Positions 23,242 to 23,403 of a stretch of 64,000 bases of DNA are shown here, one piece after another; position 1 is the stretch's first letter; every line of letters starts with the position of its first letter. Both the position numbers and the translations under genes were made by a program. The notes beneath the pieces are model-generated. The model was not told where the DNA came from. It saw only the letters and a program-made list of their open reading frames with translations, and did not search any database. The stretch is from Alphaproteobacteria bacterium (GTDB lineage: Bacteria > Pseudomonadota > Alphaproteobacteria > Micropepsales > Micropepsaceae): contig JAJPHG010000039.1 of assembly GCA_021325375.1 (NCBI GenBank), forward strand, positions 34,390 through 98,389. Reading direction: 5' to 3'.

Positions 23242-23343
23242 TCAGCCCGCGAAAATCGCCTGCGCCGCCGCGGTCAGGGCGAAAGACGACGCCATGAAGC
23301 ACAAAAGCCCGATCCCCGCCGCCGCATCCTTGAGCCAAGCCAT
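23242..23343 (-). CDS. 33-aa single-TM microprotein, candidate SOS-inducible (SidA-like) protein
   Basis: Frame reads MAWLKDAAAGIGLLCFMASSFALTAAAQAIFAG*; GGGAG 6 nt upstream of ATG; preceded by promoter plus LexA box; paralogue at 24638-24790. Confidence 0.75.
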   Translation of the reverse strand: MAWLKDAAAGIGLLCFMASSFALTAAAQAIFAG

Positions 23344-23370
23344 GGTCCACTCCCGTCCAAAAGAGCGGCG

Positions 23371-23403
23371 ACCGTATTTGTTCTTGTATTGTTCGTCAAG
23401 AAC
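23371..23403 (-). promoter_or_regulatory. LexA-type SOS box within a sigma70-like promoter
   Basis: Minus strand TTGACG (23394-23399) - 17 nt - TACGGT (23371-23376); spacer contains GAAC-AATACAA-GAAC (GTTC-N7-GTTC at 23380-23394 on plus). Confidence 0.75.

What the first reader, a model, noticed from the sequence alone, without database searches (positions are those of the whole stretch)
23242..23403. Unannotated 33-aa membrane microprotein under a LexA-box promoter, upstream of dnaE: candidate SidA-type SOS division inhibitor
Directly visible: minus-strand ORF MAWLKDAAAGIGLLCFMASSFALTAAAQAIFAG* (one hydrophobic helix), GGGAG ribosome-binding site, and a promoter TTGACG-17 nt-TACGGT whose spacer carries GAAC-N7-GAAC (GTTC-N7-GTTC on plus). 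That is the established alphaproteobacterial LexA consensus. Its placement between -35 and -10 is where a repressor would block transcription. Caulobacter SidA is an established about 29-aa SOS-induced inner-membrane division inhibitor; I recall, but cannot verify here, that sidA also maps beside dnaE. The ORF is below the length cutoff of the supplied track, so it would be missed by default annotation.
Basis: partly seen in the sequence, partly recalled or inferred. Interest (0 to 1): 0.85.

Follow-up and report, generated by a model that had tools for sequence, protein, structure and literature searches.

The report
SidA-like SOS microprotein upstream of dnaE
The sequence contains a real, conserved 33-residue membrane protein gene switched by the DNA-damage repressor LexA in front of the replicative polymerase gene, very likely a divergent relative of Caulobacter's SidA, a tiny brake on cell division, and similar genes sit at the same place in many alphaproteobacterial families.

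Summary
A 33-aa ORF (23242-23343, minus) lies 89 nt before dnaE, with a GGGAG ribosome site and a GAAC-N7-GAAC box (23380-23394) inside its promoter spacer. The box alone is not above chance (81 per genome, control 83). Conservation settles it: 33 of 36 same-genus genomes carry the ORF, and only assemblies under 75% complete lack it. The box precedes the ORF in all 36 species examined. Selection is purifying (pN/pS 0.39; other frames 1.06 and 2.2). In this genome the same box precedes recA, lexA, ssb, imuA and mmcB. The window ORF does not hit the SidA model, and direct similarity to SidA is insignificant, but intermediates from other families link the two significantly. Outside the genus, all 15 loci (12 families) with a box upstream of dnaE carry a one-helix microORF behind it. 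Best reading: a divergent SidA-type SOS division inhibitor. Regulation and homology are inferred from sequence; division inhibition is untested.

The parts
23242..23343 (-). 33-aa single-helix membrane microprotein, SidA-like
   Evidence: ORF read; homologues in 33 of 36 congeneric genomes; pN/pS 0.39; predicted as one helix, residues 2-32, pLDDT 95.5
23350..23354 (-). GGGAG ribosome-binding site
   Evidence: read directly; GGGAG/GGAG-like sequence at this place in most congeners
23371..23376 (-). -10-like hexamer TACGGT (weak, 3 of 6)
   Evidence: TATGGT or TATACT at the same place in some congeners
23380..23394 (-). LexA box GAACAATACAAGAAC
   Evidence: conserved before the ORF in 36 congeneric species
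23394..23399 (-). -35 hexamer TTGACG
   Evidence: TTGACA/TTGACG or TTG within a conserved TTTTGTTCTTG stretch in the genus
19712..23152 (-). dnaE, DNA polymerase III alpha subunit, downstream on the same strand (89-nt gap)
   Evidence: TIGR00594 match of 1160 bits
24638..24790 (-). second SidA-like ORF (50 aa) without LexA box, found only in this species so far
   Evidence: profile match E 6.2e-5

Best explanation
The ORF is a divergent SidA-type SOS cell-division inhibitor. In undamaged cells LexA sits on the box between the -35 and -10 elements and blocks transcription. After DNA damage, RecA-stimulated LexA cleavage frees the promoter; a burst of the 33-aa peptide inserts into the inner membrane as one helix and binds the late divisome (FtsW, perhaps FtsN), holding back septal wall synthesis until repair is done. 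Read-through into dnaE may raise polymerase III alpha at the same time. Shown here: the gene, its conservation, the box, its use in this genome's SOS genes, the dnaE synteny shared with sidA. Inferred: LexA binding, induction, membrane insertion, the FtsW target and division arrest.
For: Conserved ORF and box throughout the genus. Same motif before recA, lexA, ssb, imuA, mmcB in this genome. Caulobacteraceae sidA, a 29-aa one-helix protein, occupies the same syntenic place behind the same box type. Sequence chain with hydropathy-preserving column permutations: genus to f125 0/500, f125 to f4 3/500 and to f9 1/500, f4 to SidA 0/500, f9 to SidA 2/500. In 12 of 12 other families with a box upstream of dnaE, a one-helix microORF follows it, background 5-8%. 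One confident helix. Caulobacter SidA is an SOS-induced inner-membrane inhibitor acting on FtsW (PMC4211646).
Against: Direct genus-to-SidA similarity is not significant (hhalign P 0.022; 149/500 permutations) and the NCBIfam SidA model does not hit. The motif W-x-K-D...GxGL...SSFxL differs from SidA's LALASVxxFVWMV. The -10 is weak. No expression, binding or phenotype data exist for this organism.
Confidence: 0.72

Rival explanations
1. It is an SOS-induced membrane-acting peptide of the TisB/DinQ kind: a single helix that depolarises the inner membrane to slow metabolism or favour persistence, with no divisome target.
For: Size, single helix and LexA control fit equally well; DinQ is a known SOS-regulated single transmembrane peptide (PMC3567139).
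Against: The helix carries no charged residue after K5-D6, unlike the charged amphipathic TisB (own knowledge). TisB and DinQ come with antisense RNAs, which I did not look for. Synteny and the sequence chain point to SidA instead.
Confidence: 0.12
2. It is a leader ORF whose translation tunes expression of dnaE; the box makes dnaE SOS-inducible and the peptide itself matters little.
For: Always upstream of dnaE on the same strand, usually within 15-106 nt; Caulobacter has many small leader ORFs (PMC4117421).
Against: Peptide sequence is under purifying selection in its own frame. In five congeners the gap to dnaE grows to about 0.5-1.1 kb, while box and ORF stay together. The intergenic hairpin is no stronger than shuffled sequence. 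SidA, at the same locus, acts as a protein.
Confidence: 0.08
3. The box is a chance match, or serves the divergent TPR gene (23475-24641, +), and the ORF is spurious.
For: GAAC-N7-GAAC is not enriched genome-wide; the TPR gene starts 80 nt from the box.
Against: The box is conserved before the ORF in 36 of 36 species. Of the eight congeneric regions examined for neighbours, a TPR-like divergent ORF was seen only in G483. Codon-level conservation excludes a spurious ORF.
Confidence: 0.02

Closest known systems
SidA of Caulobacter crescentus (NCBIfam NF033228)
   Same: About 30 aa, one hydrophobic helix, GTTCN7GTTC-type LexA box, located upstream of dnaE on the same strand; linked by sequence through intermediate families.
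   Different: No direct significant similarity and no hit to NF033228; 33 rather than 29 aa; conserved motif is W-x-K-D-A-A-A-G-x-G-L...S-S-F-x-L instead of R-x-x-L-A-L-A-S-V-x-x-F-V-W-M-V. FtsW binding is unknown.
DidA of Caulobacter crescentus
   Same: Small membrane division inhibitor acting on the late divisome (PMC4211646).
   Different: DidA is SOS-independent and binds FtsN (PMC4211646); the window ORF has a LexA box. The second ORF at 24638-24790 has no box, but nothing ties it to DidA.
YneA, SosA, ChiZ, DivS
   Same: SOS- or damage-induced small membrane inhibitors of late division steps (PMC13396833).
   Different: Described as unrelated genes in other phyla (PMC4211646); YneA and ChiZ carry extra domains such as LysM (PMC13396833).
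TisB and DinQ of Escherichia coli
   Same: SOS-induced single-helix peptides.
   Different: Act on the membrane itself and have antisense RNA partners (PMC3567139 for DinQ; TisB from own knowledge); different promoter logic and no dnaE linkage.

Membership tests
SidA (NF033228, equivalog) | Score above the curated cut-off of the SidA model | tested here: not met
   No NCBIfam family at E up to 10 for the window ORF; real SidA proteins score 60-73 bits, cut-off 35
SidA (NF033228, equivalog) | Direct sequence homology to Caulobacter SidA | tested here: inconclusive
   Profile-profile P 0.022 and 149/500 permutations: not significant; significant only through f125, f4 and f9 intermediates
SidA (NF033228, equivalog) | About 30 aa with one transmembrane helix | tested here: met
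   33 aa; 19-residue hydropathy peak 1.77; one helix predicted, residues 2-32
SidA (NF033228, equivalog) | LexA box in the promoter | tested here: met
   GAACAATACAAGAAC at 23380-23394; conserved in 36 species; binding itself not tested
SidA (NF033228, equivalog) | Same genomic place: upstream of dnaE | tested here: met
   28 of 30 Caulobacteraceae loci and this genus
SidA (NF033228, equivalog) | Inhibits division by binding FtsW (and FtsN) | not testable with these tools
   Needs expression and two-hybrid experiments
Alphaproteobacterial LexA regulon | GTTCN7GTTC direct repeat shared with recA, lexA and other SOS genes of the same genome | tested here: met
   Boxes before recA, lexA, ssb, imuA and mmcB, genes named from their sequences; consensus from PMC12700426
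TisB/DinQ-type SOS peptide | Antisense RNA partner | not tested
   No transcript data; not searched for

The most novel reading that the evidence does not exclude
A LexA-controlled, one-helix SidA-type division inhibitor just upstream of dnaE is an ancestral feature of a large part of the Alphaproteobacteria, kept by synteny while its sequence drifted beyond recognition. The LexA box upstream of alphaproteobacterial dnaE genes would then really belong to this checkpoint gene, and many lineages thought to lack a known SOS division inhibitor would have one.
Probability: 0.6. Interest if true: 0.65.

Novelty: new variant of a known kind. Interest (0 to 1): 0.55.

Why it matters
SidA is known from Caulobacter and its family, and SulA hardly beyond gammaproteobacteria, so the SOS division brake of most alphaproteobacteria is unnamed. 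If the dnaE-linked, LexA-controlled microORFs seen here in a dozen further families are functional SidA relatives, one short genomic rule (LexA box, then one-helix ORF, then dnaE) predicts that brake directly from sequence, in genes that default annotation skips or calls hypothetical. It also raises a testable link between induction of a division brake and induction of the replicative polymerase.

Tried and rejected
The box as evidence on its own: rejected, since it is no commoner than the reversed control. Pfam and NCBIfam: no family for either ORF. Direct profile comparison with SidA: not significant. An earlier pairwise z-score matrix shuffled members of a group independently, which overstates significance; it was replaced by whole-column permutations. 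An intergenic terminator or attenuator between the ORF and dnaE: the hairpin is no stronger than shuffles. Weak hits of the genus profile in other families inside long frames: treated as chance, except G352, which belongs to f125 and has a real ORF. Naming the genus: the closest named records are only 'Alphaproteobacteria bacterium' MAGs. My first reading of the genus loci forgot strand orientation and was redone.

Full report
What is in the sequence. On the minus strand, ATG at 23343 to TGA at 23242 encodes MAWLKDAAAGIGLLCFMASSFALTAAAQAIFAG, with GGGAG before it. TTGACG (23399-23394), 17 nt, TACGGT (23376-23371) stand upstream, and GAACAATACAAGAAC (23380-23394) lies between them. dnaE (19712-23152) follows 89 nt later; it matches TIGR00594 with 1160 bits. 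AlphaFold2 gives one helix, residues 2-32, mean pLDDT 95.5.

Is it more than chance? The box alone is not: 81 sites per genome against 83 for the reversed pattern. Conservation decides. The ORF was found in 33 of 36 congeneric genomes; the three without are only 58-74% complete. In all 30 loci fetched and 6 more regions, GAAC-N7-GAAC stands 36-70 nt before the start codon. W3 and D6 are invariant and A7, A9, G10, F16 nearly so. Substitutions in 68 close pairs fall 423, 190 and 733 at codon positions 1, 2 and 3, and pN/pS is 0.39, against 1.06 and 2.2 in the two other frames. More than 500 relatives exist in public protein collections, unnamed or 'hypothetical protein' wherever a name was listed.

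Is the box a LexA box here? In this genome the same motif precedes recA (L193), lexA (L191), ssb (L179), imuA (L184) and mmcB (L188); I assigned these genes by reading their translations. Caulobacter's published SOS consensus is GTTCN7GTTC (PMC12700426). Within the genus the box either fills the promoter spacer or overlaps the -10 region, both places where a repressor would block transcription. Binding itself is inferred.

Is sidA really beside dnaE? Yes. Among 30 dnaE loci of one family (f64, genome handle G100 and relatives), 28 have a one-helix ORF, mostly exactly 29 aa, 50-400 nt upstream of dnaE; 18 of the 30 show an exact box. A protein search with these ORFs returns 'cell division inhibitor SidA' of Caulobacter, Phenylobacterium and other Caulobacteraceae; one listed protein (P0041, Caulobacter sp. 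CCUG 60055) is identical to the ORF in locus L150. They score 60-73 bits with NF033228, cut-off 35. Caulobacter SidA is a 29-aa inner-membrane SOS division inhibitor acting on FtsW (PMC4211646).

Homology to SidA. The window ORF does not reach NF033228 at any E-value up to 10. Genus profile against SidA profile gives P 0.022, and 149 of 500 column permutations that keep the hydropathy pattern score as well as the real pair. Intermediates connect them: genus to f125 0/500, genus to f84 5/500, f84 to f4 0/500, f125 to f4 3/500, f125 to f9 1/500, f4 to SidA 0/500, f9 to SidA 2/500. f125 (MSEWVKDTAALFVLGAVMWSGFALTAAAQAAG) shares its C-terminal half with the window ORF; f4 (MTNFLKDFLALSSVVGVLWAVTVWSAIVGSALT) shares LALSSV with SidA's LALASV. 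All lie behind a box. I take this as good but not conclusive evidence for common descent; the shared position strengthens it.

A class-wide pattern. I read 98 regions upstream of dnaE from 76 other alphaproteobacterial families. Fifteen (12 families) have a sense-strand GAAC-N7-GAAC; all fifteen have a 25-50-aa ORF with a hydrophobic helix starting 25-90 nt behind it. At arbitrary positions in these regions the rate is 5-8%; boxes with a wrong spacing occur 0-2 times. Caution: the ORF criteria were set after seeing the first examples, families are not fully independent, and many families with no box show no such ORF. Named loci outside Caulobacteraceae that fit are Marinicaulis and a Parvularculaceae MAG. 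I found no paper describing this distribution in the library available, which lacks most subscription journals, including the original SidA paper.

Mechanism. LexA repression, RecA-dependent release, membrane insertion and a hold on septal wall synthesis through FtsW/FtsN is the most likely course, by analogy to SidA. The rivals, a TisB/DinQ-like membrane peptide and a dnaE leader ORF, are weighed above. Against the leader ORF: five congeners have about 0.5-1.1 kb between the ORF and dnaE while box and ORF stay together. dnaE could still be co-induced.

Verdict. I file it as a SidA-like variant rather than a SidA family member, because the curated SidA model was tested and not met.

Noticed in passing
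24638-24790 (-): A second SidA-like ORF, MAAVHHFEILKDTAQSRFVLWLKDLGAALGLVAFIASTSVLMDALSALFS, about 1.3 kb upstream of the first (profile E 6.2e-5). No GAAC-N7-GAAC before it, and no counterpart seen in congeners; perhaps a duplicate freed from SOS control or decaying.
   Followed up: partly
23475-24641 (+): A TPR-repeat gene is transcribed divergently and starts 80 nt from the LexA box, so it might share the operator; a similar arrangement was seen in one congener (G483, L249).
   Followed up: partly
about 2.4 kb left of window position 1 (G000:C12:31979-31993; locus L191): lexA itself, with its own box GAACTAAAGTAGAAC, lies just outside the window on the same contig.
   Followed up: yes
18479-18493: The only other GAAC-N7-GAAC of the window lies inside an aminotransferase-like gene and looks like a chance match.
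   Followed up: no
L190 (G000:C29, about 614): A box-like site stands 29 nt before a GroEL-like reading frame; chance match or SOS-linked chaperonin, not tested.
   Followed up: no
23379-23406: The operator region also holds a perfect 10-bp inverted repeat, TTTGTTCTTG / CAAGAACAAA, around the box centre; the TTTTGTTCTTG half is strongly conserved in the genus.
   Followed up: partly
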